Source: Sialis fuliginosa
Taxonomy: Eukaryota > Arthropoda > Insecta > Megaloptera > Sialidae
Assembly (NCBI GenBank): GCA_961205875.1
Contig: OY540809.1
Location: 35,228,267 to 35,292,266 of the forward strand
DNA length: 64,000 bases
Direction: 5' to 3'
Under the pieces are notes generated by a model. The model ran no database searches and was not told the DNA's origin. It worked only from the letters and a program-made list of their open reading frames with translations. Both the position numbers and the translations under genes were made by a program. The first letter of the stretch is position 1; the number at the start of each line of letters is the position of its first letter. Positions 17,446 to 34,976 of this stretch are shown in pieces.

Positions 17446-20400
17446 ATGGCGATAATCGGAACGCTTGTGTCACTTACGGGGTCCTTGTATGTGACACCTT
17501 TTCTAATGATTATTTTGTGTGTAGTATTTTTAGCTTCCATAGGCATGACCGTTGGTGTCAGAAGATTGTATATACAATTATTAATATGGATTTTTGAGGT
17601 ATATTATGTATTATGTGTTAGCTGACAAATATTTTGTTAATAATAACTGTCAATTTATGTTTTTAAACGGGATTATATACACTGAATATTAATTTATTTA
17701 ATTTTTATTTATTTTTAAATAGTATGGCCGTGCCAATATTGAAGTAGCAAATAAGAACAAGAGACAAATTAGCAAAGAAAATAGGGATGGAAAAGGTGAA
17801 GCGCAAGTGTCTTCAGAAACATCTGATGAGAAAGATTTAAGTAATTTGGATGCGGATACTTTACTTGAGTCATGTAATAAAAAACCTAATGGATTTTGTA
17901 ATGGAACAATGTCTGTTATTAGGAGAGAAGATCTAATTCTGGTACCAGATCCTGAATTAAATTATCACAATAACCCTATTCAAAATAATGATAATAAAAC
18001 AGAAACTGGTGAAGAGGACGAGAAAGATACACAGATTGAAAATCAGGTAATTGTGCTTCCAATTTATTAATTTATTAAGGTACAAAAAATCTATCATTTA
18101 ATATTTATTAGAAAATACATAGAAAATATGTTAAATTATTTTGGTCATTTTAGATTTTTAAATATAGAACACCTATGGATTTTTAAAATACTTTTTAGAA
18201 TATTTTGGCACACAAAAAAGAGCATATTCTTATTTTTCAGTCTTGTTATTTACTCCACATAACTATTTTTGTATAAAAATATAAACAAACATTTGTATTA
18301 CAAATTACAGTAGAAAGTGCAAGTAATATAAAAAAAGATCAAAATAAAAATACAATTAAAAAAAAATATTTTCTTAGGTTATTGCCAAATTGGTTTATAG
18401 TTTTTAAAAACGAATAGAAGAATGTTAAACAAAAAAAATTGTTATTACCTTTTGCCTCTTTGCATTATTTTAAACAGAACAATAATTTGTAAAAATAGAA
18501 TCTGCATTTTACTTCATTATGTCGATTTTGTTTTATTTAAAGACATTCAAGGTCTTATTTGATTTTTAGTAACTAAGATCATGAGTAGGCTAAATGATTA
18601 TAGACCAAAGGTTTTTAATTTGTCTGTAGTCTAGATTTTATCACACCTTTACTTTATATTTACATTAATAGTGTTATCAGCAATTTTGAACTTTATTTGT
18701 TCACAATCTTACAAATTTATCTTTATCAGTGTCTGTTTTGTATAAAGATGAGCTGATAAATGATAGAATATTATTTATTTGCATTTTCTTCATTAAAAAA
18801 TATAAAGTAGATTACATGTACATTAGTATGCAGTTCATAGGTCATATATTTAATAAATAAAGGATAAATAATTATTATCTTTACTAACTTTTTTGTTCTT
18901 ATTTTTAGTAAAAATTTCCAAGAAAAAGAATTTGGTTAGTTTTTTCCCATTATTTTGATCTGCTTTGAATAACTTTACATTTCAAGGTCATAAAATTTAT
19001 TATTTAATGAGTATAAAGCACTGGAACTTAACAAAAACGGAGACCGTTACTGTATTATTTGCATAGAATCCAAATGAACAGATTTTCAGTGCTGGACGGA
19101 CACTGTTTTTTCTATATTGAATTCAATAATAAAGATCTTCGAGGTCATGATGGCCGTTGTCTTACACACCAGCAAAACGTTTTTTTAAACTCCTGTCGTA
19201 CCGTTTTGACGGTGCTATAATCAACTCGTATTAAATCACATATAATAGATTTTCAAGGTTGAAACGGTGATGGCCTCCGTTCTGTAAAGTGCCACCGCTT
19301 ACGAGTTTCTGCAACTCTTGAAAATATTGAAAAAGTTATATATGTATTTTAAAATATGTAATGTAAAGATCTTGACATTTAAAAAATATAAAATTTACAT
19401 TTATTTAATTTATTTATATTTCATAATGACAGAAATAATTACAATTTGTTATTACGCTTAATAAATTCATTAATTTGACATTAATTGCAATGATTCATTA
19501 TTTTTTACATGCTGTATCACTATGTTATTGTTACACTGTAAACAATTTTATGTGTCCAATTGTAATAAAAAATTATAATTTACACATTTACAAGTTAGAT
19601 AAAAACAAAATAATATACTTTTTTTACTATACCAAGTACTTTCATATTTAAGTGATTTATTTACTTATTTTATTTTTAAAATTTTTATTTATTGTATTTT
19701 ATAATTTCAACAACCTGAGTTATTTTTATGTTTTTATTTCAAAATGAAAAAAAAACTGCAAAAGTATCTTAAAAATATTAAAGCTATGCTTGAACTAAAA
19801 TAAGTTTACTTTACAAACAACTATCGAATTGGCAAAATGAGTAACTGAGGACTGAGGATTCATATAACTTTCAGTTTCAGATTTTTTTTTATTTATATTT
19901 ATACAGTGCCGAATTAACCATGTAGCAGGAGTAGCAAATGCTTTTCGGAAATATATCTCTTATTGGATTTACTATCTACCGTCCAATGATTGGATATACG
20001 GGGTGTCCAAATCTACAGTAATTAATAATTTAATTTTCGGGTTTCCAATCTCGATTTAATTTAATCGAAAAATCGATTTTTAAAGCTCCGATCTTTGATT
20101 TTTTCAATCGATTTTTCTAAATTTACGCACATATATTTTTTTCGGTTCGGTACATGTTAAAATATGCACGTTAACATGATCTTACTCCCCACTTCAGTTG
20201 TTCAGGACTATCATACAAGTACATTTAAATATTCTAAATTATGATAGAAAATAAATTTTTAATACAAATAAAAAAAAATTATAATTAATCACTCGGAGCT
20301 GAATTGAAAACCGGAAAAACTGTTATTATTTTCGGAATGAAAACTGGAACCAAACGAAAACCGAAACATAAAAAATAACGGTTCGAAGTCCTGATTTAAA

Positions 20401-23400
20401 GCTTCCAAGGGATAAAATGTCTAATAAATTGAATCAATTAACTTTTTTTTGGTCATTGTCAAATCTCTAAGGGGTGATAACTGTACAAGTTATTTTAAAA
20501 AAATAAAGCTCTGAAATTTTTTCTGCTGTAAAAAATTGATCAGGATGTCCACTTTCTGGAAAGTCAGGGAAACCTAAAGTGGTCAAGGAAAGTCAGGGAA
20601 TTTATTTAAAATTCTGAAAAGTCAGGGAATTCATTAATTTTTTTTTAGAAAGTCCGGGAAAAAAGAAAAGGGTCATTGAATTGAAAGTAAGTAATAAGTG
20701 TAAAATTTTCAAGTTTTGACAAAAAATAGGTCTTCAAATATTATTTCTGCACATTCTTGCCCCGAGTCAGGGAATTTTGAATCTGTGGTCAGGGAAAAGT
20801 CAGAAAATTTTATTTCCAAAAACCAGTGGACACCCTGTTAATTCACAGGAGGTAACACTCGCCAAATGCACAAAAAATAAATCCTATTGACTTTTTTTGG
20901 GGGGGTGGGGGAGAGGGGCACTATCGATTTCCGCCCTGAGTCACCCTCCCCCCTAGCGACGCCACTGCCAATGGCCTCTATAACATTTGCTACAGGCTCC
21001 TCGCTGACTTAATTTGGCACTGTATTTATAGTTAAATGTATTATAACTTGCAAGTATTAAATGTTATTTATATTCACAGACAAAACTGGATTTCCAAATA
21101 TCTACATGCCTAGATTTACTAAAAGCCGGTGTTGAAGCAATAATTGAAGATCAAGTAACATCGCGATTTGAAGCCGAAGAATTGAAAAACTGGAATCTTT
21201 TAACAAGGACCAATCGACAATATGAGTTCATTTCATGGAAGCTGACAGTTATTTGGGTGTTTGGATTTTTTGTCAGATATTTCTTCCTGTTTCCTTTAAG
21301 AGTACTAATTTGTTTCTTTGGGGTAAGTAAATAAAAAGCATGCATATATGTTAGTTTTAACTGACTTCAGAATGTTATAAAAAAAAGTGTTTATAAAAAT
21401 TAATTCGGTCAAGACATATGCCATAAGGGTTCCGAACTGTGCCGGATTAACTATGTAGCAGGAGTAGCAAATGCTACAGGCCCCGCGGTTTTTCGCAAAA
21501 ATATCTCTTATTGGTTATACCATCTACCATCCAATGATTGATATGGGGTGTCCAAATTACAGTAATTAATAATTTAATTTTAGAGTTTCCAATCTCGACT
21601 TGATTTAATCGAAAAATCGATTTTTAAAGCTCCGATCTTTGATTTTTTAAATCGTTTTTACTAAATTTGCTCACATTAAACGCCCCGGGTGACGCCCGTC
21701 TCATTTGTTAACCCTCAAGCAGTCGCGCGGCGTCAAATCGACCGCACTTGATATATTATTGTTTATAATTTTGAATATTTTCGTCACAAACATTTCTCGT
21801 CTCAAGTACCCTCTTCTAAGTTCACTACAAACAAAAACAACTAATTACCCCTTTCTCCGCGCATCCCATTTTGTACAAATAGCTTTTGTTTTAGTCGCGG
21901 TGAAAATTCTGATGAGGAAGAAAACTGAGATTTTGGATTTTATAATTTTTTTTTAACTATTTGGTGTTTTAATTCCCTAAAATCTTCAATAGATCCGTAG
22001 CGACGCCACTGCCAATGACCTCTTTATAACATTTGCTACAGGTGACTTAATCTGGCACTGGTTCTGAAATACGTACTACCTGGACTGTTTGGAGCCACAG
22101 GTGCATTTTTGAGTTATAAAAAAAAATTGGGTCTTATTCTACTAATTGTGATCTACATTTCGACACTCTTGTCTTGGTATACAATTTTTTTTGGATTTGC
22201 TTTAAAGCCCCCTGAAGGCGCCATTTAGATTTAGAAAAAAATAAGAGAAAGGGTAAAATTTCACTGTTTTGGTTATACATTTTGACGTGCCACATGGCTT
22301 GGTATAAAAAAAATATTTTTTTGTCTTGCTTTAACCCCTCTGAAAAATTATTTTTTCAAAAAATTTGTATATATTTATTTACATGTTCAGTACAAATTTC
22401 AAGTTTCTAGCTTGTATAGATTATGAGATATTTTGCTTTGACTGAAAAGGACGGACAGATGGATAGACTGACGGACGACAAAGTGAGATTAATAGTGTTT
22501 CTTCGGAACCCTAAATATTTAAAAATACTTTATATTTTTTGAAGGTGGTTAGATTAAAATAAAAATAATTTTATTATAATAAGATTATATTTTCCACTTT
22601 AAATATTTTATTATTCGTTCTTTTTGCTAGTGATAATTTATTCAAGGTTTATTAATCTTAATGTTTTTTCATATTGTTTGTATTACACATGTAATAACTA
22701 ATTGATAATTATAGTTTCTAGAAATTTTCAGGTTTTTTGATACTTACAAATATATTAATAAATAATTTATAAATGCTGACATTATGAATTAGCATTATAA
22801 GTTTTTAGATATGAATCTTTGATATCGACCAGTACCACATACTGATGATTATTATTTAGTTTTTAGTATTAACGTAATAAAATATGTTTGTTTTTTTTTT
22901 TAAATAAAATTATAAATGATATGTTTATTAGTTTTAGTTTATTAATTATTTACGGTTGTTGCAAAATATGTTTTATTCACCATACATTTTATTATACCGG
23001 GTGTTCCAGACCACCCGTCCACTCTGTTTTACGCCTAAACTATTGAATATAGAGTTTTATGATAAAAAAATTACTATATATATATCGACCCTAAAGAATT
23101 TTAAGAAAATATTTTCAACCCTCTAAAATCACCCCTTGGGGGGTAGTTTGAGTGGTACATGCCCGTTTCTCAGCAAAATTAAATGGAACGGTTTATCTAA
23201 AAGTACATAATTTTAAAGATTTATAAGAAACTTTTGTAAAAAAAATTTCATACATTCAATTGTTTAGAAAATATGGCGACTTGTTCCCAAATTTTAAGGT
23301 TTTACTAAAAGTGCTCTAGTTTCGTTAAATATTAATGAAATTTTATTTAAATTTTTTTTTTGAAAGTAGAAATAATGAACTTTCTAATGATATATGGTTA

Positions 23401-26400
23401 TTTGAGATTTGTATAATTTATAGTGTCATACGCGACATCAAAAATGCAAAATTTCAATTGGGGATAATTCAAAAATTTTAAATGGAAAGAAAATTTAAAA
23501 TTAAAAATTTTTTTAACAAAAGTTTCTTACTTTTTTATGATCTTTAAAATTACATACTTTTAGATGAACCGTTCCATTTGATTTTGCTGAGAAACGGGCA
23601 TGTACCACTCAAACTACCCCTCAAGGGGGTTTTTAGGGGGTTGAAAATATTTTCTTGAAATTCTTTATGGTCGATATATATAGTAAATTTTTTATCATAA
23701 AACTCTATCTTGAATAGTTCGGGCGTAAAACATAGTGGACAGGGTAGTCTGGAACACCCGGTATATTTTTATTACACTATGTACATATTTTTCTTACTTT
23801 CTCAATTGATTTTATTTTGTAATTTTAAATAACCTTGATGTCAATCTATGTATGTATGTATTTTTCTGAATTGCAATGAATAGGTATTATGGAGCAGTAC
23901 TTCAATGCCTATTATAGCTTTATTACCTCAAAGTCGTTTACGTCGTTGGTTAAACGTGCAAGCGTACCTTATAACATCCAGGTTGATAGCTCGCTCGCTG
24001 TCAGCCGTCATCACGTTTCACAACCACGAGTACAAACCTACCAAGTCTGGGGTGTGTGTTGCTAACCACACAACGCCGATAGATACTGTTTTTTTGTCCA
24101 CAGAGAATTGTTACTCTTTGGTGAGTTAATGGGCAAAGTTAGCACGACTCTGGATTGCACGAAAAATGGGATTTGTGTTGTACTGTGTTGTTGAGAATTA
24201 ATACATTTTCAGGGATTTGCTGGTGTGCAGAGGCAGAGGTCATCTGTAATTTATATTTTTTATTTGCTGTTCTGTCAATAAATATTATTTTTCATATTTT
24301 GTGTATTTAAAAATTTGTTTTTAATAAGTTTATCTAATCTCAGTCATAAATATATCAGTAAGTAAACATATATTTGTATATCAATTACAATTATGTTATT
24401 CAATGTATGACGATAATAGAAAAATAGTAAATTTGAAAATATTTTTGGCTATCATAAAATAAATAAAATGATGTAATTATTATTGTTTCATAGATAACAA
24501 TAATAATAAATACGTTACTGATATTGTTTTAAATATTAAATTAATAACATAAATCAGAGGTATTTCATTTTTACTTTTTGAATATTTAATCATTAACAGA
24601 TTCATTTATCTTTCACGGTGCTCTGGAAGCCAATTTTAATAAAAAAATTGATTACCTCCGATTTTCTTGTACAAATCAATTCTTTAGTATTTAAGGAACA
24701 TTTTAAGACCAAAAAGAAAAAAATCACCTTGGCGCATTTTTAATAATTCATAAAACAAAAAAATACATAAATTGTGTGCAGGTCATAACGCAATTTTTTT
24801 TGAATTATTTATTATTTATTAACTTTTTACTCTACAAAATAAACAACAAAAATAAAAAATTATTGGAATTCGAACTCAGGACCCATTGTTTATAAGATCT
24901 TTTATAATTTTTGTAAATTTTGAAATATAAAACAAACGGTATTTTATATCGAAAAATCACAAGAAACACAATTATTTGCTTTTATTAAGGGGATTCCAAA
25001 ACATATTTGATATTATCGATACGATAATTAATACCCGAGATATGAATTATTTTCAATTTTGAACGGCCGCCATTTTGAAATTCATAAAGAAATTCCGCTA
25101 ACTAACGAACTTAACTGAGGTATTTACAAGATCGATTTTACTACCAAGTTTCAAAAAGATCAGAAGAATACCTGAAAGGCTAGAGACTCCACATGAAAAT
25201 AAAATGGCCAAGTGCGTGTTGGGCACGCACATGATATGTTTCCGTAGTCATTACGATTTATAAACAAGAATTATTTCAACGGACGCTCTGATAAAAACAT
25301 TTAAATGCAAATATATCGTGACTGAAGGGTTCAAATCAAAAGGTCATATAACATTTTTTGTTGCATTTTAGGAGACCTATGTATCTAAAGATACTCCACT
25401 CAATGGGTTAAGTGAAAAAAAATTTGAGAACAATTTTCAGTCTATGGGGGGGGGGGGGGGGGTCCAAAATAATTTTGACAGTGTTCGTTATAATTTTCAG
25501 TGAAAGTACTAATTCAAAGCTACATTATGAATTTTTTTCAGATTTTTTGAATAGATAGTTTAGAAATTAGGGTGGGGGGGACGCTCTGATAACGACATTT
25601 AAATGCAAATATATCGTGACTGAAGGGTTAAAATCAAAAGATCATTTAACAAGTTTTGTTGCATTTTAAGAGACCTATCTAATGACATCCCACTCAATGG
25701 GTTAAGTGAAAAAAATGTGAGTTTATTTTTCAGTCTATGGGAGGGGGGTCCAAAATAATTTTGACAGTGTTCGTTATAATTTTCAGTGGAAGTACTAATT
25801 AAAAGCTACATTCTAAATTTTTTTCAGATTTTTTGAAAAGATAGTTTAGAAATTAAGGGGGGGGGGGGGGACGCTCTGATAACGACATTTAAATGCAAAT
25901 ATATCGTGACTGAAGGGTTAAAATCAAAAGATCATTTAACATTTTTTGTTGCATTTTAGGATACCTATCCAATGACATCACATTTAATGGGATATGTGAA
26001 AAAAAATTGTGAGTTCATTTTTCAGTCAATGGGAGTGGGGGCCAAAATAATTTTGACAGTGTTCGTTATAATTTTCAGTGGAAGTACTAATTAAAGGTTA
26101 CATTCATGAATTTTTTCAGATTTTTTAAATTGATAGTTTAGAAATTAGGGTGGGGGGACGCTTTTATCACGACTTTGAACGCAATTATATCGTGACTGAA
26201 GGGTTAAAATCAAAATGTCATATTGCATTTTTTATTGCATTTTAGGAGACCTATCTAAAGACTCCCCATTTAATGGATTAAGTGAAATTTTTTTTTTGAA
26301 AATACTTTTCAGTCTATGGAAAGGGGGTCCAAAAAAATGTTTTTTTCAAAAATATTATCATTTCTGTTTTTGGGTTATCAGTCTTCGTCTGTATACCAAA

Positions 26401-29400
26401 TTTTATCTTAATCGGCTTAAAATTTTTGAGGACGGACGGACGGACATGGCGAAACTATAAGGTTTCCTAGTTTTCTACGGAAACCTAAAAAGCCTTATAA
26501 TAAAATTGAAAATAATTCATAACTCGGGTACTAATTGTCGGATCGATATTATCAAATATATTTTAGAATTTTCTCAATTTATGTTATTGTATCTCTTATG
26601 ATTTTTCGATATAAAGTGCCGTTTGGTTGATATTTTAAAATTTACAAAAAATTATAACAAATCTTGTAAACTAAGGGTCCCGAGTTCGAATCCCAATATT
26701 TTTTTATTTTTTTGTTTATATTGTAGAATTGTAGAGTAAAAAGTTAATAAACAATAAATGCTAAATAAAATTCGCGTTATAATTCTGCATACGGTTTATT
26801 TATTTCATATTTTATGAATTATTAAAAAAGCGCCAAGGCGATTTTTTTCTTTTTGGTCTTAAAATGTTCCTTAAATACTAAAGAATTGAACTGTACAAAA
26901 AAATCAGGGGTAATCAATTTTTTTAATTAGTCGGCTTCCAGAGCACCATACTTTGGAACTGTTTGAGAAGCATAATATACTATATGGGATGTATAGTTTA
27001 ATACATATACGGTTAGTGCCAGGTAGGGTGATCAGATTTTAGTTTTTGTAAACCCTGACATGTAATTTTTTTTATTTTATTTTATCCTTTTTATTTTTAT
27101 TTTATTCTTTTTATTTTTATTTTCATAAAATTTATGAAAAATTTATTACCCTAATCTGCACTTTTGTGCTCCCTCTCTTTTTGTCGACCGTTTTTTTTAG
27201 TCGTTATCATTTTTTTGCATAACCCGGAGAAATTGCACTGAAACCTTGAGCCCGGAGAAACAGTATGCAAACCCTGAGACTTCGGGTCAAAACCTGAGAC
27301 CTAGTCACCCTAGTGCCAGGGGCAAAAATTGTGTGGATAAAAATTATTTATGTTGGGCTTAAATTGTAGCTTAGAGAGAGAGCTTTCAAGTGTTGATAGG
27401 TGTTTTTAATTATTCATTATAAGGGAGGCTAAAATTTGGACTGAAATAGTTAAAATTTTGTAATTAAAAAAACATACAAAATAATGCAAACATTTCATTA
27501 CATATGTATTCCTTGGCTGATTAGGAATAATTCCAAAATTTTGATATTTGGAGTTTTAGAAAAATTTTCAAAATGTAAAAAGTGCTTAGATTAGTCCAAA
27601 AATGCAAAAAGTCCAGATCAAAAATTGCAAATATCATAATTTTGAAATTGTTCCTAATCAACCAAGGGATACATAATAATATGAGGCTTAGAAATATTTT
27701 TTTTACTCTGTGTATGTTTTTTTATAGTGATTCATAAACACACACCCATCTAAAGTGATCTCTCTAAGCAGCAATTTCAGCCCCAAAAAAATTATTTTTT
27801 CCACACAATTTTTTGGCCCTTCATACGGAACGTTCCATTTAAATTTTAAAAAAATTATAACTTTTAGGGTGTGTGTGATTCTAAAAACTGCATTTCATTA
27901 TGCTCCTAAATCCTTATCCCCTTTGTAAGGTCAATGAAAGGTCACTATTGTAATTTTAAAAAGTTGACCTTTCAAATTATATATTTCTATCTCTTTATGG
28001 TTACTTCTGTCTCACTTCTTTACACGCTTAAAAAATGACATTCTTTAAATTTCTGGTACAATCCACCAGAAATTCCATGAATCAACCAATCAAAGCTCGT
28101 TGTTCACTGTTTTTGGTCAGTCGTGAACGTGACCAATGTGTTTTGTAGAATCACACAGTATTTAAACATTTCATACATGGCATTTATTCTGAAACATATT
28201 TAACCTAATCAAATTGTATATTTGTTCTGCATTGTTCTACAGAGTCATTATTTTTGTTTTAAATTGTTCGGGAGGAGTGGAGGGTGTTCTGTGTATTACA
28301 TTAAATTGGCGCGGTCTATGGCCTTGAACGTTGTCCGCCATAAGAGCGAAAACTTTAAACGCAATTATCTCGTAAATCGTTCATCCTACGATAAAATGTA
28401 TTACCATCTTTTTTGTTCAACAGACTTGAATATACAAATTTGTTCAAAGGTCTAACTGTCTACCATCAATTGGTAACGAGATATAATGCAATGAAGTTAA
28501 CAAAAAACGTTTTTTTTTGCATTTATTTCGTAAAAAAGCAATTATATTGAAAAAACTTAAATAGCAATCTTTTAGAACTATCAATTTGCAATATTTTTTC
28601 TAACAGCCATCATTTCAGAAAACTTATAGTTTGCCAGTTACAGCCCGTGAAACATTGCAAAAAAGCATTTTTTCGTTATATTTCAAAAACCATAATGCAA
28701 CCTTCGAAATGTGTAATGACAAAAGTGTAGATAACAAAATTTTACACTTTTTTGTTTGAAAAAAAATTTTTTTTTGTTGATTAACAAACAATTTTTTTTT
28801 TAAACAAAAAAAGTGTAGAATTTTGTTATATATACCTACTTTTGTCATTACACATTTTGAAGATTGCATTATGGTTTTTGAAATATAACGAAAAAATGTT
28901 TTTTTGCAATGTTTCATGGGTTATAACTAGCAAACAGGGTTTTCTGAAATGATGGCTGTAAGATAAAATATTGCAAATTGATAGTTCTAAAAGATTTCCA
29001 TTTAAGTTTTTTCAATATAATTGCTTCTTTATGAAATAAATGCAAAAAATCGTTTTTTGTTAACTTCATTGCATTATATCTCGTTACCAATTGATGATAG
29101 ACCTGTGAACAAATTTGTAGATTCATTTGTTGAAAAAAAAGGTGGTTATAAATTTTATCGTAGGATGAACGATTTACGAGATAATTACGTTTAAAGTTTT
29201 CGCTCTTATGGCAGACAACGCTCAAGCAAATTTGCTAGCTAGCAAGCACTTTCAAATGAGGTATCAAACTTATATGACAGTTCTTTTGGAGTTTGTTGAA
29301 GAGTTTGACAAGTTTCGCGCACGCGTTGTAGGTAAACACCAACGGTATTAAAACAGTGGTGATATTATGAAAATTATTTTGTACGGTGAAAGATGCCAAC

Positions 29401-32400
29401 TGTTACAATTAGTTGAAGTGTCACTGCTCTAAATTCCATAGCTATGGATCTTGGTTTCTGGGTGTAAGCCGCGTCGGTTTAGTCGTGTTATCGGCCAACG
29501 TTTCGTCACACATTGCAGTGGACATCTTCAGGGCTCTTCTAAGACCTGTATTCCATAGCTAATCCATAGCTACTAGTACCGAATTAATACTCCATTTGAA
29601 AGTTCTTGCTAGCTAGCTTATTTTGCTAGTACCTTTATAATACTGGACATTAATGTAGTATTCAGAACCCCCCCCCTCCCCAGCAATTTAAAACAAAAAA
29701 AATGGTTCTGTAGAACAATGTCTTATTTTATTTTGATAATTTGATTGGACTAATTGTAAATAATAAATTGACTGAGATTTCAGAAAAAATTGAACTAATT
29801 CATTTTGAATATATTATTATCATTAATTAAAAAACTTAATTGACAAAACACAAATGCTTTTAATCAGGGACTTAAACAAAACTCTGTTTGAGCAGATTCA
29901 TTCTGATTCTGGTTTTGAATCAGTTTAGTCTTTAATTTTAGTCCATAACATTGGTTGAATACTTACAGGTAATGTTGCTGACCGTATGCACTGCGCTGGT
30001 CGGGTATGCTTCGGAAGGCCCTTTCAAGACAGCTCTGAACCGTTATGTGTCGATGATGTGTTTTGGGGTGTTATCTCGAGCATTGTCATCGGTCATCATG
30101 TACCACAATGCCGAGAATCGGCCAAAGAATGGCATTTGTGTTGCGAATCACACTTCACCGATTGACGTGCTCGTACTTATGTGTGATAATTGTTATTCGT
30201 TGGTATGTTGTACTTAATAGGTGTTGTGGTATGAATGATTGATTCATAAAACCAATAAGTACCATTTAAATAAAATATATTGTCTAAATAAAATAATTTA
30301 TAACATGAAAATTACATTTTTAAACTGTTTCAATATCATTATTTTTAATAAAATGGGCTTGAATGGAAAAATATCAAGCTATGTAAATTAATACCTTCAT
30401 TATCACAAAAAAATTAACAATGTGCTTTAAATGTAATGTATCCTATTAACATATTAATTTAAGTTTTTTGACAGAAGGTAATAATAAATATTAAAAATAT
30501 TTATTTACAAATTAGTTCTATTTTTACTCTAGGCTGTCTAGGCTAAAAAGTACCTAAAATAGGAATTTTTGTGTACAATTTTAATACTTACAGGATAAGT
30601 TACAGAAGTGATGAAGAATAATACCCTAATTTTGCTCCGATTTTGGTTGTCCGTGACAGGAGTTAACCATGGTTCAATTGCAAAATTCTTAAATGTGATG
30701 CACACATCACACCATCTCATTTAACATCTTCTATCTTCCAGTGTGAGACCGACACCTCTCTTTCTATGCTCAGTATATTCTTTTATATGTATATGGTTTT
30801 CAGCCATTTTAATCAGCGTAGCGGATAAACAAATGATTTTTTAAATTTGTTTCAAAATGGAGGTTGTAGGAAATTTTATAGCAAATAACTTTTATGTATT
30901 TAGCAAAAATCAGAAAAACTTAAGAATTTTGCAATTGAATCATGGTTAACCCCTGTCGCGGACAACCAAAATCGGAGCAAACTTAGGGTATTATTCTACA
31001 CCACTTTTATAACATATCCTGTAAGTATTAAAACTGTATGTAAAAATAATATGTTTTAGCCTCCATAGTCTAGATTATTTCTGCCATTTATACACATTTT
31101 TCATTAGCATATGTGCTTTATGCATGAATGGATTAATAATATTATTTTATGTGCATGTATTTTTGTTTGTTTATATATTATTTTCGTATTTGAATTTTAA
31201 TACTTGTGCTTTAATTTCGAAGTGGTTGTTTTTAGATCGGACAAAGGCACGGAGGCTTTCTTGGCGTGTTACAAAGAGCACTGGCTAGAGCATCTCCGCA
31301 TATTTGGTTTGAACGTTCTGAAGTAAAAGATAGAAATGCTGTAGCTAATAGGTATGCTTTTTCATTTTAGAGATTTAATATTTTTAATTCTTTGGGCGAC
31401 AGGGTTGTTTGTATGTAGAAATTTATTTTTGAAAAATATTTTGGATAAAACAATAATTGTTATTTTTAATTGTATACAGCCTATTGATATTGTTTATGCT
31501 ACTTTTAAATACACTGAATAGATTTTGTTACAATTAACAATGGCAATGAATATGGATATGAATTTCACATGTAAGATTGTGACCTAATTCTTATTCATCT
31601 ATATTTTATTTAAAATATGTCCACTGTTGTTTGTTTAAATCAGTAAAATTTATATTTGCATTTTTTTGTACTTTTTTCTTTGAAAAATCATTATACACTT
31701 TTATAATATTTATAAAGATATGCAGCTAACAGTAAAAAAAATGAACAAATGTATCCCTCCTTTAGGGGTTGAATTTCGATAAATCTATTTATAGTGGGTG
31801 CTTACGTCTTAATGTTTCTAGGTCCGGTCAGTTACCCAGAACTTTCTTTATATATTATTTATATAATCCTTTACTAATATTTCGATGGTTTCTTTGACTC
31901 ATTGATTTTTTCATAATTTAGCTAGTATAATAGTTAAAAATTCATATTTTGTCAAACTGTCTGTTTGAAGTTTGATCACCAAATTTTTATTTTGACTGAT
32001 AAAAATATAAAAAATGTCTATATAGTCCAGGCTGTGGAGGCTAAAACAGATTATTTTTGCGTACAGTTTTAATACTTACAGGATATGTTACAAAAGTGGT
32101 GTAGAACAATACCCTAATTTTGCTCCGATTTTGGTTGTCCGCGACAGGAGTTATGTCATTTCTTCAAGTTATAGGTAAATATATAAAGACAAATTTTGAA
32201 AACAAAAACTCTTAATATACTCTGTTTTTGAATATAAATGTGATAATTATAATTTTAATTATGTGCTTTCTATATTTACCTGCCTATAACTTGAACGAAT
32301 GATTTTTCCGTGGGCTCTATTTCAATAACTATTTATGATACATAATTTTCAAAAACACCATTTTGTTCGAAATTTTAATCAGCTTTAAGATTTATAAAAC

Positions 32401-34976
32401 CTATTTTATCCTAAAACTGATCATTCCAGTGTTATTCCCAAATAACTGATTGTTCAAAACGAACAAACTATCACAGCAGCGCTGAAAAGTAAATAAATAA
32501 GTTGTAGCGGCTCTGAAATAAAACAATTGTATTTTATTAGTATAATTGTGAAAAATGTATTGAAAATGTCACAAAATTTGTATACTCTCGAATAATTGTA
32601 AATTAAAGAAATATACATATATAACGGACAAATATTGTCTCAAAATAATTCCGACCAGTGATTACTTCAATTTATACACTGATTTTAGAAATTTTTGTAA
32701 GCCCTTAGAAAATTATGCACCCCCCTTCGAAGTTATTGCCATGTTCTATACATCAAAATCTATCAATTTCTTGAAAAAAAATGTACTCCGTCATTTTTTT
32801 CTATACAAAATTGTCTGACGACTGAATTATTAAAAGTTTAATTACTTGTAAGTAATATTTTACAGATCAATTATTCCCTAACATATTCTGTTGGTAGTAA
32901 TTATTTTAGCCAATCAGAAAAGAACATTCTTTGTATTCCATGAAAATAACAATTAAAAACATAACATAATTTTCCCAGATTAAAACAGCACGTTTCTGAT
33001 CCAAAAAATCCACCGATTTTGATATTTCCCGAAGGAACATGTATCAACAATACATCCGTAATGCAGTTTAAGAAAGGTAGTTTTGAAGTGGCCAGCGTAA
33101 TCTATCCAGTTGCGATCAAGTACGATCCTAGGTTCGGGGATGCGTTCTGGAACAGCCACAAGTATTCCATGATGCAGTATTTGTACATGATGATGACAAG
33201 CTGGGCAATTGTCTGTGACGTTTGGTATTTGCCTCCCATGTACCAACAGGAAGGCGAATCAGCTATCGAGTTTGCCAACAGAGTGAAAAGTGTCATTGCT
33301 AAACAAGGTGGTCTCGTCGATTTAATGTGGTATGTTTGTTTATTTACTTCTGTGGATAAAAACTTTTGTTGTAACTTAGCCAATCTAGGATTGTAACAGG
33401 TTTGTGCTTCCTGAGCTGGATCTTCTTTTGAATACAGTAGGACTCCTATAAGGTCTAAATCAAACTTGTCCAACCCGCGGCCTGCGAGTATCTTTGGAGC
33501 GGCCCTTATCGGATAATTTAAAAAAAATCTTAAATTAATAAAATAATGTTGAATATAACACATAACACAACGCTAACAGGATTCTACAATTTAAAAAATA
33601 AAATACAATGTTTTTAGAATCAAAAAGAAAAACTAGAGGTACCTTATTTGGAAGATCATAAATGGTTGGCAGATTTAGTTTTCAAAACTTAAAGAATAAA
33701 ATAGACTTTAAAAAACCAGAAACACTGACATGTATACCTAATAATTTTTAACAGTTTTTGAAGTCAGTTTTCTTTTCTTTTTATTAAAAAGTTTTTTATT
33801 GGCTTGGTACCGATTTCAAAAACTGTTAAATTTAATTATTAGGTATATTTCTCAGTGTTTTTAGTTTTTTAAATCGATTTTATTTTTTTCGTAAAATTAA
33901 GTTTTTTATTTTTCTCTTTTGAGTGGCGTATCTTCGAAGTCCATGGTCAGATTCCAGTAGCGTAGTAAAAAAAAATTCGGAGGGGGGGTAAATACATTGA
34001 GCAAAATGTTTTCTCAGAACACGTTTTTTTTAGAACACTAAATATTTTGGGGGGGGGGGGGGGTTATCATGTGTGGCCCTTGGTAGATTGGGTTTATGCT
34101 ATGTGGCCCAAAAGGTTGGACACCTATGGTCTAAGCTACGGGACCGTAAATTCTAGGAATTAGAAGATACAGGGTACCCCTTCTATCACAATAGCAATCT
34201 AATGAAATGAGACGGGAATAGTTTTCTCTCACTCGCACACTTTGCTCAGAGCTATCAAACATAACCCACGTGAATGATACTCTGGTGGTTTTGAAATGTT
34301 ATATGACAGTTCATCATTTGTAATGTAAAAGATATTGACTATATTTGAGTTTTATTTTTGTTTTTTCTCTTTATTATAACCTTAACTAAATTTTCCGACT
34401 GGTCCTTGCCTGTTATTAATTTTTTTTCTTCAAAAAGGTATTGACACTAGCCTATAATGAAAGTATTTGATTACATATTGGTTTTTTTTCGTCTGTTTAA
34501 TAACGTTGTACATATATTTCTATTTATATAATCGTGAAACCATTTTAATAATTATTTTCTCGCCGTTTGCGAAAAAATCTGAAAAATATAAATTTCAATC
34601 TTTAAAATGTAATTTTATTTTTGCCTTTTTTTCTAGCAATACTTTAATGATTATTAATGTTTTTTTCTTCAGAATATGTTTTATTTGTTAATTATAATTT
34701 TTTGTTCGAACAAAATAATTTTCTTTCAATTACAAACTTGAAACCAAACCTGAACCTGAACCCTAAAAAAATAACGGTTTTTGAACCCAAATAGTTTGCA
34801 ACATGTTGAACCCAAACCATAAATAAATTCCGGTTCAAGTCTATGCTTTACAGGCATATTTTGACACTGTATTTATTATTATTTTTAGGGATGGGCAGTT
34901 AAAACGATCAAAACCAAAAAAAGAATGGAAAGAACTACAACAACAAGAAGTTAGTAAAAGATTGAAAATAGAATGA
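17446..34976 (+). CDS. Gpat4: Glycerol-3-phosphate acyltransferase, GPAT3/4 type, with alternative catalytic exons
   Basis: Predicted ER enzyme that acylates glycerol-3-phosphate to lysophosphatidic acid, the first step of glycerolipid synthesis. Exons: 17446-17598, 17723-18046, 21080-21322, then either 23884-24120 or 29969-30202, then 31236-31351, 32979-33329 and 34889-34976 (stop TGA). All introns are GT-AG and phases match throughout. The products are 503 or 502 residues. Order: membrane segment near residues 12-35 (GMTVGVRRLY follows), acidic linker (exon 2), amphipathic region and second hydrophobic stretch (WKLTVIWVFGFFVRYFFLFP, exon 3), then the acyltransferase domain: NHT(T/S)PID, FERSEVKDR, FPEGTCINNTS (about residue 374), PVAIKYDP and a conserved GGLVDLMWDGQLKR tail. 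The start at 17446 has a good context (AAACATGG). An in-frame ATG at 17347 would add 33 residues. AATAAA occurs at 34996-35001 and again near 35260. Confidence 0.93.
18047..19903 (+). other. Gpat4 intron 2, left part, no gene seen
   Basis: AT-rich intron sequence. About 19070-19310 contains GC-richer inverted fragments (GGACGGACACTG, GTAAAGTGCCACC) that look like a decayed relative of the MITE at 5823-6009. The rest shows no recognisable feature. Confidence 0.45.
19904..21022. mobile_element. hAT-type element in Gpat4 intron 2 (family E), copy 1
   Basis: A perfect 8-bp duplication TATTTATA flanks it (19896-19903, 21023-21030). Terminal inverted repeats are CAGTGCCGAATTAA and TTAATTTGGCACTG, followed by GTAGCAAATG and CATTTGCTAC words. 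The interior is a composite of a CGAAAACCGAAAC-type fragment (about 20140-20396) related to 62189-62540 and a family F element (20541-20837). No transposase is present. The element stops 58 bp before exon 3. Confidence 0.88.
20541..20837. mobile_element. Family F MITE with GTCAGGGAA repeats, copy 1
   Basis: Inverted ends CAGGATGTCCACT and AGTGGACACCCTG. The body is built of variants of AAAGTCAGGGAATTT. A second copy at 40322-41677 is interrupted by family D. The flanks TTGAT and TTAAT could be an imperfect short target duplication; the second copy has AAATA on both sides. Confidence 0.7.
21400..22515. repeat. Family G repeat interrupted by a family E element
   Basis: The ends read AATTCGGTCAAGACATATGC, then AAGGGTTCCGAA, at the left and TTCTTCGGAACCCTAAA at the right. 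Near the right is a GGACGGACAGATGGATAG tract preceded by ATTTCAAGTTTCTAGCTTG. The same text occurs at 49540-49740 (left end) and 63290-63440 (right end). It is probably a non-coding retroposon-like family. The family E copy at 21437-22060 splits it. Confidence 0.65.
21437..22060. mobile_element. hAT-type element (family E), copy 2
   Basis: Ends CTGTGCCGGATTAAC and TTAATCTGGCACTG match the first copy. The flanking 8-mers are GTTCCGAA (21429-21436) and GTTCTGAA (22061-22068), one mismatch apart. It is inserted into family G. The inner part holds a 9-codon-scale ORF remnant at most and no recognisable transposase. Confidence 0.8.
22997..23761. mobile_element. TA-flanked foldback element upstream of Gpat4 exon 4a
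   Basis: Inverted ends CCGGGTGTTCCAGACCACCC and, at the right, CTGGAACACCCGG are flanked by TA (22995-22996, 23762-23763). The arms exceed 200 bp, with matching words such as CTCAAACTACCCC and GAAACGGGCATGTACCACTC. It is 765 bp long, non-coding, and ends about 120 bp before exon 4a. Confidence 0.82.
23884..24120 (+). CDS. Gpat4: Gpat4 alternative exon 4a (HTTPID catalytic motif)
   Basis: 79 codons in phase 0 at both ends, between an ATAG acceptor and a GTGAGT donor. It encodes a hydrophobic start (MPIIALLP), SRLIARSLSAVITFHNHEY and the catalytic block GVCVANHTTPIDT; in the 503-residue form the His and Asp of HxxxxD fall at residues 302 and 307. It is homologous to exon 4b along its whole length, with identities concentrated in the second half (CVANHT-PID, NCYSL). 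It departs more than 4b from the canonical HTSPID. It keeps intact splice sites and an open frame, so it is not an evident pseudo-exon. Confidence 0.88.
24617..26947. repeat. 2.3-kb foldback with internal tandem array, in the Gpat4 intron
   Basis: The left end GGTGCTCTGGAAGCC and right end GGCTTCCAGAGCACC start arms of about 450-650 bp with matching text (CGCCTTGG-type words, GGTCTTAAAATGTTCC, ATTATCGATACGATAA-like segments). The centre is occupied by tandem units of about 290 bp. There is no clear target duplication. It is non-coding and lies between the two alternative exons. Confidence 0.82.
25282..26460 (+). repeat. Tandem array of about 290-bp units
   Basis: Units start at 25282, 25579, 25870 and 26158 (spacings 297, 291 and 288 bp), each opening ACGCTCTGATAACGACATTT or a variant. 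They run through AATATATCGTGACTGAAGGG, GGAGACCTATCTAA, a G-run of variable length (20 G at about 25446) and AATTTTGACAGTGTTCG. The fourth unit diverges after its midpoint and continues into sequence shared with the MITE at 3492-3839, including a GGACGGACGGACGGACATGG tract. Confidence 0.85.
27024..27312. mobile_element. hAT-type MITE, 289 bp
   Basis: A perfect 8-bp duplication GTGCCAGG (27016-27023, 27313-27320) flanks terminal inverted repeats TAGGGTGA(T/C) and (T/G)TCACCCTA. Subterminal words such as AACCCTGACAT and AACCCTGAGACTTCGGGT recur on the right side. It is non-coding. Confidence 0.88.
27319..27820. repeat. Foldback repeat in the Gpat4 intron
   Basis: AGGGGCAAAAATTGTGTGG at the left faces CCACACAATTTTTTGGCCCT at the right. 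Further matching pairs, such as ATTCCTTGGCTGATTAGGAA and TTCCTAATCAACCAAGG, lie nearer the centre. The left edge overlaps the target duplication of 27024-27312, so the hAT MITE landed at or just beside this foldback's end. Confidence 0.7.
28324..29225. repeat. 0.9-kb palindrome in the Gpat4 intron
   Basis: The left arm begins TTGAACGTTGTCCGCCATAA and the right arm ends TTATGGCAGACAACGCTCAA, with about 400-bp arms. Long stretches are nearly identical in reverse (AATCGTTCATCCTACGATAA and its complement). The arms yield mirror-image short ORFs with no domain. It abuts the truncated family C copy. Confidence 0.82.
29226..29649. mobile_element. Family C MITE, left-truncated copy with a retro-insert
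   Basis: It matches 6843-7095 from GCAAATTTGCTAGCTAGCAA to TAATACTGGACA. The left inverted terminus is missing where the palindrome at 28324-29225 abuts. It carries the 106-bp insert 29444-29549. The copies share GCACGCGTTGTAGGTAAA and CAACGGTATTAAAACAGTGG. Confidence 0.75.
29444..29549 (-). mobile_element. 106-bp Penelope-like insert with hammerhead core boxes
   Basis: The insert is defined by comparison with the empty family C copy and by an 11-bp duplication ATTCCATAGCT (29433-29443, 29550-29560). On the minus strand it reads CCCTGAAGATGTCCACTGCA, then ATGTGTGACGAAACGTTGG. CUGAAGA and GAAAC are the two conserved boxes of a hammerhead ribozyme, and between them GTCCAC can pair with GTG(T)GAC as stem II. 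Penelope-like retroelements are known to carry such hammerheads followed by CGTTGGCC-type sequence. No reverse transcriptase is present. Stems I and III were not verified. Confidence 0.6.
29969..30202 (+). CDS. Gpat4: Gpat4 alternative exon 4b (HTSPID catalytic motif)
   Basis: 78 codons in phase 0 at both ends, between a TTACAG acceptor and a GTATGT donor. It encodes VMLLTVCTALVGYASEG, then LSRALSSVIMYHNAENRP and GICVANHTSPIDVLVL, ending NCYSL like exon 4a. The catalytic His and Asp would be residues 301 and 306. This version is the closer of the two to vertebrate GPAT4 as I know the family (SVIMYHNAENRP and HTSPIDV are near-canonical). It lies 5.8 kb downstream of 4a. Inclusion of both exons would keep the frame but duplicate the motif. 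Confidence 0.88.
30528..31073. repeat. Family H foldback between Gpat4 exons 4b and 5
   Basis: The left arm (GCTAAAAAGTAC, ACTTACAGGATAAGTTACAG, TTTTGCTCCGATTTTGGTTG, AGTTAACCATGGTTCAATTG) and the right arm (CAATTGAATCATGGTTAAC, CAACCAAAATCGGAGCAAA, CATATCCTGTAAGTATTAAA) are complementary over about 180 bp. One arm recurs alone at 32021-32152 in the next intron. The left arm contains acceptor-like CTTACAGG and the right arm donor-like TGTAAGTAT, so cryptic splice signals are repeated around the alternative exon. Confidence 0.75.
32021..32152 (+). repeat. Family H single arm
   Basis: It repeats the left arm of 30528-31073: GGAGGCTAAAACAG, TTTTAATACTTACAGGATA, AATACCCTAATTTTGCTCC and GTCCGCGACAGGAGTTA. 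It is followed at 32162-32298 by a small inverted pair around AAGTTATAGGTAAATATA. Confidence 0.75.
33461..34128. mobile_element. hAT-like MITE in the last Gpat4 intron
   Basis: Left end CAAACTTGTCCAACCCGCGG and complemented right end CATAGGTGTCCAACCTTTTG share TGTCCAACC. Flanking 8-mers GTCTAAAT and GTCTAAGC agree at six positions. GCGGCCC/GTGGCCC subterminal words are present. A hairpin at about 33730-33865 (ACTGACATGTATACCTAATA and complement) and a 13-G run near 34052 lie inside. Confidence 0.65.
34395..34860 (+). repeat. Repeat fragment with AACCTGAACC motifs
   Basis: It shares text with 61950-62150 (TTTTTCTAGCAATACTTTAA, AACAAAATAATTTTCTTT, AACCTGAACCCTAAAAA), which lies in the hAT element at 61516-62626. 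It is probably a decayed copy of the same family. It precedes Gpat4 exon 7 by about 30 bp. Confidence 0.6.

What the first reader, a model, noticed from the sequence alone, without database searches (positions are those of the whole stretch)
23884..30202. Probable mutually exclusive exons encode two versions of the Gpat4 catalytic motif I
Exons 23884-24120 and 29969-30202 are homologous, both phase 0-0, 79 and 78 codons, share the C-terminal NCYSL junction and each carry HxxxxD (NHTTPID versus NHTSPID). The flanking exons are single-copy. Swapping them changes a membrane-associated stretch and the acyl-acceptor/acyl-CoA active-site block while keeping motifs III and IV fixed, so two enzymes with different specificity or location could come from one gene.
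Basis: partly seen in the sequence, partly recalled or inferred. Interest (0 to 1): 0.85.

Follow-up and report, generated by a model that had tools for sequence, protein, structure and literature searches.

The report
Swappable exon pair in GPAT4 gene
One gene for a fat-building enzyme carries two alternative versions of the same exon, which would let the animal make two enzymes that differ in half of a membrane hairpin and the start of the active site; this is a likely but unproven case of a known kind of alternative splicing.

Summary
A GPAT4-type acyltransferase gene (17446-34976, +) has two homologous, open, phase 0-0 versions of coding exon 4: 4a (23884-24120, 79 codons) and 4b (29969-30202, 78 codons). 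They share 37% identity (E 3e-20), both carry HxxxxD, and each completes a PF01553 domain. The genome search found no other convincing copy. Codon-position identity (41, 52, 27 of 78) shows protein-level selection, so 4a is unlikely to be a relic. 4b is closer to the family profiles. Mutually exclusive splicing is the likeliest use but is inferred: there are no RNA data here, and transcripts with both exons or neither also stay in frame. The more interesting consequence is membrane targeting: the e3/exon 4 junction falls inside the hydrophobic hairpin known in fly GPAT4 as the lipid-droplet module LiveDrop. 4b gives a strongly hydrophobic second arm; 4a a weaker one with two added tryptophans and more basic residues. 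Three of the four foldback stretches in the introns were searched and are dispersed repeats; one moderate RNA pairing across the 4a-4b intron is a lead only. Other insects could not be searched.

The parts
17446..17598 (+). coding exon 1, from ATG (start codon assumed)
   Evidence: open, GT after; joins in frame
17723..18046 (+). coding exon 2, linker
   Evidence: AG before, GT after, phase 0-0
21080..21322 (+). coding exon 3, ends in first arm and hinge of the membrane hairpin (ISWKLTVIWVFGFFVRYFFLFPLRVLICFFG)
23884..24120 (+). alternative exon 4a: divergent second hairpin arm, basic helix, motif I NHTTPID
29969..30202 (+). alternative exon 4b: more canonical second hairpin arm, motif I NHTSPID
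31236..31351 (+). coding exon 5 (IGQRHGG...WFERSEVKDR), shared by both forms
   Evidence: alone only 13.6 bits to PF01553, below the cut-off of 23
32979..33329 (+). coding exon 6 (FPEGTCINN motif, PVAIKY)
   Evidence: PF01553 E 1.5e-9 for the surrounding ORF
34889..34976 (+). coding exon 7, C-terminus and stop
   Evidence: acceptor
24121..24426 (+). possible RNA-pairing partner downstream of 4a (lead only)
   Evidence: duplex with 29701-29967, E -98.3
29701..29967 (+). possible RNA-pairing partner upstream of 4b (lead only)
   Evidence: duplex with 24121-24426

Best explanation
Exons 4a and 4b are an old tandem exon duplication in what appears to be the genome's only gene with this exon, and they are spliced as alternatives, one per transcript (inferred). 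Shown from sequence: either exon joins e3 to e5 in frame and yields a complete acyltransferase of 504 or 503 residues with the same HxxxxD. Inferred: because the swap replaces the second arm of the membrane hairpin and the stretch leading into the active site, the two enzymes differ in how they sit in the ER bilayer versus the lipid-droplet monolayer, with 4b the general (ancestral-like) form and 4a a form with altered droplet or ER partitioning and perhaps altered acyl preference. The confidence given is for alternative, one-per-transcript use; for the membrane-partitioning step alone I would say about 0.45.
For: Homology, length, phase and splice sites. Selection pattern at codon positions 1 and 2. 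No other convincing copy in the genome, so no retrocopy or close paralogue was found. Each exon alone passes the PF01553 cut-off of 23 bits (23.9 and 28.1), and each spliced form covers profile 2-132 of 132 at 93.4 (4a) and 98.8 bits (4b). In the last stretch before the acceptor (-15 to -4) 4a and 4b have the poorest pyrimidine content of the 7 acceptors, 4/12 and 6/12 against 7-9/12. Fly GPAT4 residues 160-216 are the lipid-droplet hairpin (PMC5035145, passages); its accumulation on droplets is said to rely on tryptophans and basic residues (PMC13278972, passages; PMC12687460, passages). A fly splicing network lists CG3209:4, an exon of what I recall as the fly GPAT4 gene, among exons changing in development (PMC4603746, section 6).
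Against: No RNA evidence. Both-included (582 aa) and both-skipped (425 aa) transcripts are also in frame, so frame imposes no exclusivity; the 5.8-kb intron between the exons speaks against steric crowding (inference). Over the wider stretch -25 to -4 the two acceptors do not stand out: 12/22 and 11/22 against 11-15/22, e6 also 11; and their donors match the consensus at 6 of 9, like those of e1, e5 and e6. No orthologous locus could be compared: three scans of viral contigs and one of prokaryote genome contigs confirmed no relative. The localisation claim rests on hydropathy and on fly and human-cell literature; in that literature the 3W mutant still reached droplets and only the combined 3W+KRR mutant essentially lost targeting, and full-length GPAT4 behaves unlike the lone hairpin. 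Structure models of the lone exons were poor (mean pLDDT 55.0 and 53.5). The cited fly table gives no exon type and lists CG3209:4 under Top Regulators, set against 'Top Targets (non-RBPs)', which is odd for this enzyme.
Confidence: 0.78

Rival explanations
1. The swap chiefly tunes catalysis (acyl-CoA or acceptor choice), with location unchanged: exon 4 also encodes the stretch leading to HxxxxD. This rivals the functional part of the best explanation, not the splicing part.
For: Exon 4 supplies profile positions 2-33 of 132 of PF01553; a weak match to the bacterial acyltransferase structure 5kym covers this region (E 0.0038, residues 68-236 of the 343-residue 4b fragment).
Against: The motif is the same apart from Ser/Thr; most differences lie upstream in the hairpin arm. 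Shorter queries of 161 (4b) and 162 residues (4a) did not recover 5kym.
Confidence: 0.35
2. Not exclusive: 4a is a cassette exon that can be joined to 4b, or one of the two is usually skipped.
For: All combinations stay in frame; both acceptors have poor proximal pyrimidine content.
Against: A transcript with both would duplicate the hairpin arm and motif I; a transcript with neither lacks HxxxxD (inference).
Confidence: 0.12
3. 4a is a decaying or unused duplicate exon.
For: Lower profile scores than 4b in Pfam and NCBIfam; a less hydrophobic hairpin arm.
Against: 79 open codons in AT-rich surroundings, intact motif, intact splice sites and position-2-biased conservation.
Confidence: 0.06
4. 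Assembly error (collapsed or misplaced copy).
For: None found.
Against: The exons are 37% identical in protein and 300 nt of flank on each side share only short matches; no second gene was found from which a copy could be misplaced.
Confidence: 0.02

Closest known systems
Mutually exclusive tandem-duplicated exons (Drosophila Dscam, Mhc, 14-3-3 zeta, as named in PMC3923563, passages)
   Same: Neighbouring homologous exons of like length, phase and splice sites, coding for the same protein segment
   Different: Here a membrane lipid enzyme with only two versions; no docking or selector element established; long introns with repeats
GPAT4 of Drosophila and its hairpin probe LiveDrop (PMC5035145 and PMC13278972, passages)
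   Same: Same type of enzyme (my assignment, by recall) with a hydrophobic hairpin bearing tryptophans and basic residues
   Different: The passages that I saw treat one hairpin; here the second arm exists in two versions
Metabolic enzymes with exclusive exons that change kinetics or substrate choice (KHK, PKM, ACOX1, CYP4F3; all recalled; one paper search on ACOX1 returned nothing)
   Same: Swap of one coding block in an enzyme
   Different: Those are vertebrate genes of other families

Membership tests
Mutually exclusive exon pair | similar length | tested here: met
   237 and 234 nt
Mutually exclusive exon pair | same reading frame and compatible splice sites | tested here: met
   phase 0-0, AG and GT at both
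Mutually exclusive exon pair | sequence homology | tested here: met
   37% identity, E 3e-20
Mutually exclusive exon pair | exactly one exon per transcript | not testable with these tools
   no RNA data; frame does not force it
Mutually exclusive exon pair | competing RNA structure (some members only) | tested here: inconclusive
   1 of 15 segment pairs stands out, z -4.1, 0 of 60 shuffles; 0 of 80 and 1 of 600 random pairs as strong; no conservation test
PF01553 acyltransferase / GPAT4 | PF01553 domain over curated cut-off | tested here: met
   98.8 (4b) and 93.4 bits (4a) against 23
PF01553 acyltransferase / GPAT4 | HxxxxD and FPEG motifs | tested here: met
   NHTTPID / NHTSPID and FPEGTCINN; motif names recalled
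PF01553 acyltransferase / GPAT4 | GPAT4 rather than another member | tested here: inconclusive
   no GPAT4-level model matched in Pfam or NCBIfam; TIGR00530 is below its cut-off (38.6 and 33.4 against 102.95); assignment rests on recalled sequences
Lipid-droplet hairpin (LiveDrop type) | targets lipid droplets | not testable with these tools
   sequence features only

The most novel reading that the evidence does not exclude
Alternative splicing swaps half of the lipid-droplet hairpin of GPAT4, so one gene makes an ER-resident and a droplet-seeking form of an enzyme of glycerolipid synthesis; if the fly gene has the same pair, the LiveDrop probe reports only one splice version.
Probability: 0.3. 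Interest if true: 0.75.

Novelty: new member of a known kind. Interest (0 to 1): 0.52.

Why it matters
[quoted passage not shown] its hairpin is a standard model for protein targeting to droplets. A natural pair of hairpin arms in one gene would be a ready-made experiment on what makes a hairpin choose the droplet, and a switch by which tissues could set where fat is made.

Tried and rejected
Relatives elsewhere: scans of viral contigs with 4a, 4b and exon 6 (35, 3 and 1 pattern matches, none confirmed) and of prokaryote genome contigs with the 4a/4b alignment (18 pattern matches, none confirmed). PDB by sequence: no match for 4b alone up to E 10; for the 343-residue 4b fragment 24 sequences up to E 10, of which 18 are TPR or TPR-designed proteins matched through a stretch of exon 6 and one is an acyltransferase, 5kym; 161 residues with 4b gave none and 162 with 4a gave one unrelated protein at E 1. 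Structure models of lone exons were too poor for a fold search, which I did not run.

Competing RNA structure: of 53 inverted repeats in 21323-31235 the 25 longest were shown; 19 of these 25 lie within one intron and 6 span an exon (five around 4a, one around 4b), the latter 31-40 nt and 74-78% complementary, not tested against shuffles. Of four foldback or inverted-repeat stretches I searched three in the genome; all three are dispersed: 87, 92 and 178 matches at E <= 0.001 with 40 of 1343, 40 of 222 and 40 of 1215 candidates scored, self-matches and both strands included. The remaining lead, 24121-24426 with 29701-29967, had E -98.3, z -4.1 and 0 of 60 dinucleotide shuffles; the other 14 of 15 pairs tested had z -1.1 or weaker. 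With local shuffles z -3.2, 0 of 60; against random window pairs of like length and AT content 0 of 80 and 1 of 600. I chose the segment bounds by eye; with 15 pairs tried this is suggestive only.

Literature: searches for CG3209 or Gpat4 with 'mutually exclusive', with 'isoform' (17), 'splic' (53), Gpat4 with alternative splicing and Drosophila (44), general exclusive-exon searches (13: 20 of 74 listed; 16: 15 of 218 listed), an ACOX1 comparison (45: none) and lipid-droplet targeting with alternative splicing (54) showed no paper on this exon pair by title and abstract start in what was listed; the library holds open-licence papers only, supplements were not readable, and the hairpin paper PMC7696655 is not held. 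The passages in PMC4215868 that I saw named CG32096, not CG3209.
Full report
WHAT IS THERE. On the + strand lies a gene of seven coding positions: 17446-17598, 17723-18046, 21080-21322, exon 4, 31236-31351, 32979-33329 and 34889-34976 (final bounds as used). Position four has two exons, 4a at 23884-24120 and 4b at 29969-30202. With either, the gene reads open to a stop, 504 or 503 residues. The spliced parts from exon 3 on carry a full PF01553 domain, 98.8 bits with 4b and 93.4 with 4a against a cut-off of 23. The name GPAT4 rests on recalled vertebrate and fly sequences; no model that fine matched in the two libraries searched.

ARE THE TWO EXONS RELATED AND REAL. They align over their whole length with 29 of 79 identities and one single-codon gap. 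Identity by codon position is 41, 52 and 27 of 78, where composition alone predicts about a quarter: the second position is the most kept and the third is close to saturation. That is what two coding exons look like after a long time under selection. Exon GC is 43.5% and 47.0% against 27-30% in the introns around them, and 25 of 9,208 windows of 78 codons in those introns lack a stop. Of 300 nt of flank on each side only short matches (9-33 nt, best E 0.002, no low-complexity filter) are shared, in mixed orientation, so the duplication looks old. The genome search shows 4a, 4b and one weak hit to 4a at E 0.10 on another contig, which I did not follow up; no close paralogue or processed copy was found. 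Exons 1, 2, 3, 5 and 6 occur once in the window.

WHICH IS ANCESTRAL. 4b scores higher in the profile comparisons made: PF01553 alone (28.1 against 23.9 bits), spliced (98.8 against 93.4), TIGR00530 (38.6 against 33.4) and two lyso-ornithine lipid acyltransferase models (29.8 against 21.5, 26.6 against 14.8), these three all below their cut-offs. On the other side, the one weak genome hit matched 4a and not 4b. I take 4b as the conserved and 4a as the derived version; no outgroup tree was made.

HOW IT PROBABLY WORKS. Both lengths divide by three and both phases are 0-0. A message with both exons (582 aa) or neither (425 aa) would also be open, so neither frame nor nonsense-mediated decay (recalled principle) can enforce exclusivity, and the 5.8-kb intron between them speaks against crowding. 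The seven donors and seven acceptors listed are GT-AG. Next to the acceptor (-15 to -4) 4a and 4b have the poorest pyrimidine content, 4/12 and 6/12 against 7-9/12, which would fit exons that need help to be chosen; over -25 to -4 the difference vanishes (12/22 and 11/22 against 11-15/22), and their donors are no worse than those of three other exons. Competing RNA structure is one known mechanism for such pairs (PMC6071210, abstract). Of the 25 longest of 53 inverted repeats here 19 lie inside one intron, and three of the four foldback stretches were searched and are dispersed repeats. One other pairing, between the start and the end of the 4a-4b intron, takes in the 4a donor and the 4b acceptor region and is stronger than 60 of 60 shuffles and 599 of 600 random pairs. 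It could keep 4a from being joined to 4b, but 15 pairs were tried and no relative was on hand to test conservation.

WHAT THE SWAP CHANGES. The motif NHTTPID or NHTSPID keeps the His and Asp. The bigger change is at the other end. Exon 3 ends inside a hydrophobic hairpin, and the first residues of exon 4 complete its second arm. Exon 4 begins at residue 241. In fly GPAT4 residues 160-216 are this hairpin, and fused to a fluorescent protein they go to newly formed lipid droplets, which full-length GPAT4 does not do at first (PMC5035145, passages). W172 of fly GPAT4 is named as a central tryptophan; mutating three tryptophans reduced confinement on droplets without blocking access, and mutating tryptophans and basic residues together essentially abolished targeting (PMC13278972, passages). 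If W172 is W218 here (my alignment, not tested), the hairpin is residues 206-262, of which 22 come from exon 4. With 4b the fixed 20-residue second arm has KD 2.21 and summed insertion energy 0.17; with 4a 1.54 and 4.61, and the 4a arm is broken by SSTS and proline; the best 19-residue window that reaches into exon 4b scores 2.56 and -2.41 (scales from memory). 4a gains W243 and W262, and its first 47 residues have 5 basic and no acidic residues against 3 and 1. By the published rules 4a could bind the droplet surface more and sit less deeply in the bilayer. The direction is a guess; that the two differ in membrane behaviour is the reading I find most likely.

WHAT IS KNOWN. Exclusive exons of this kind are well known in flies, and an algorithm predicts them from the four features met here (PMC3923563, passages). 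One paper lists CG3209:4 in a table of exons that fluctuate in fly development (PMC4603746, section 6). I recall CG3209 as fly GPAT4; how that paper numbers exons, and whether its exon 4 is this one, I could not check. So the pair may already be annotated in the fly or other insects. In the searches named in Tried and rejected I saw no paper that describes it.

VERDICT. A real, selected exon duplication in a lipid enzyme gene of which no second copy was found, most likely spliced exclusively. It is a new member of a known kind. Its special interest is that the swapped block includes half of a much-studied lipid-droplet hairpin, which makes a clear and easy test.

Noticed in passing
window 22995-23770, 24640-26925, 28300-29240, 30565-31047: Each of the three introns around 4a and 4b holds foldback or inverted-repeat stretches; three of the four (24640-26925 was not searched) are dispersed in the genome, listed matches mostly at 80-93% identity.
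   Followed up: partly
window 23847-23862: A TATGTATGTATGTATT run lies about 20 nt upstream of the 4a acceptor; UG-rich runs of this kind are sites for CELF/Bruno-type splicing factors in other genes (recalled).
   Followed up: no
G000:C8:4302733-4408784: Seven PF01553 matches lie within about 106 kb on contig 8, on both strands: probably a cluster of other acyltransferase genes.
   Followed up: no
G000:C5:21258691-21258813: Weak match to 4a only (E 0.10, 34% over 41 residues), perhaps another acyltransferase.
   Followed up: no
window 32060-32140 and 30580-30690: By eye, a near copy of an arm of the 30565-31047 foldback stretch lies downstream of exon 5.
   Followed up: no
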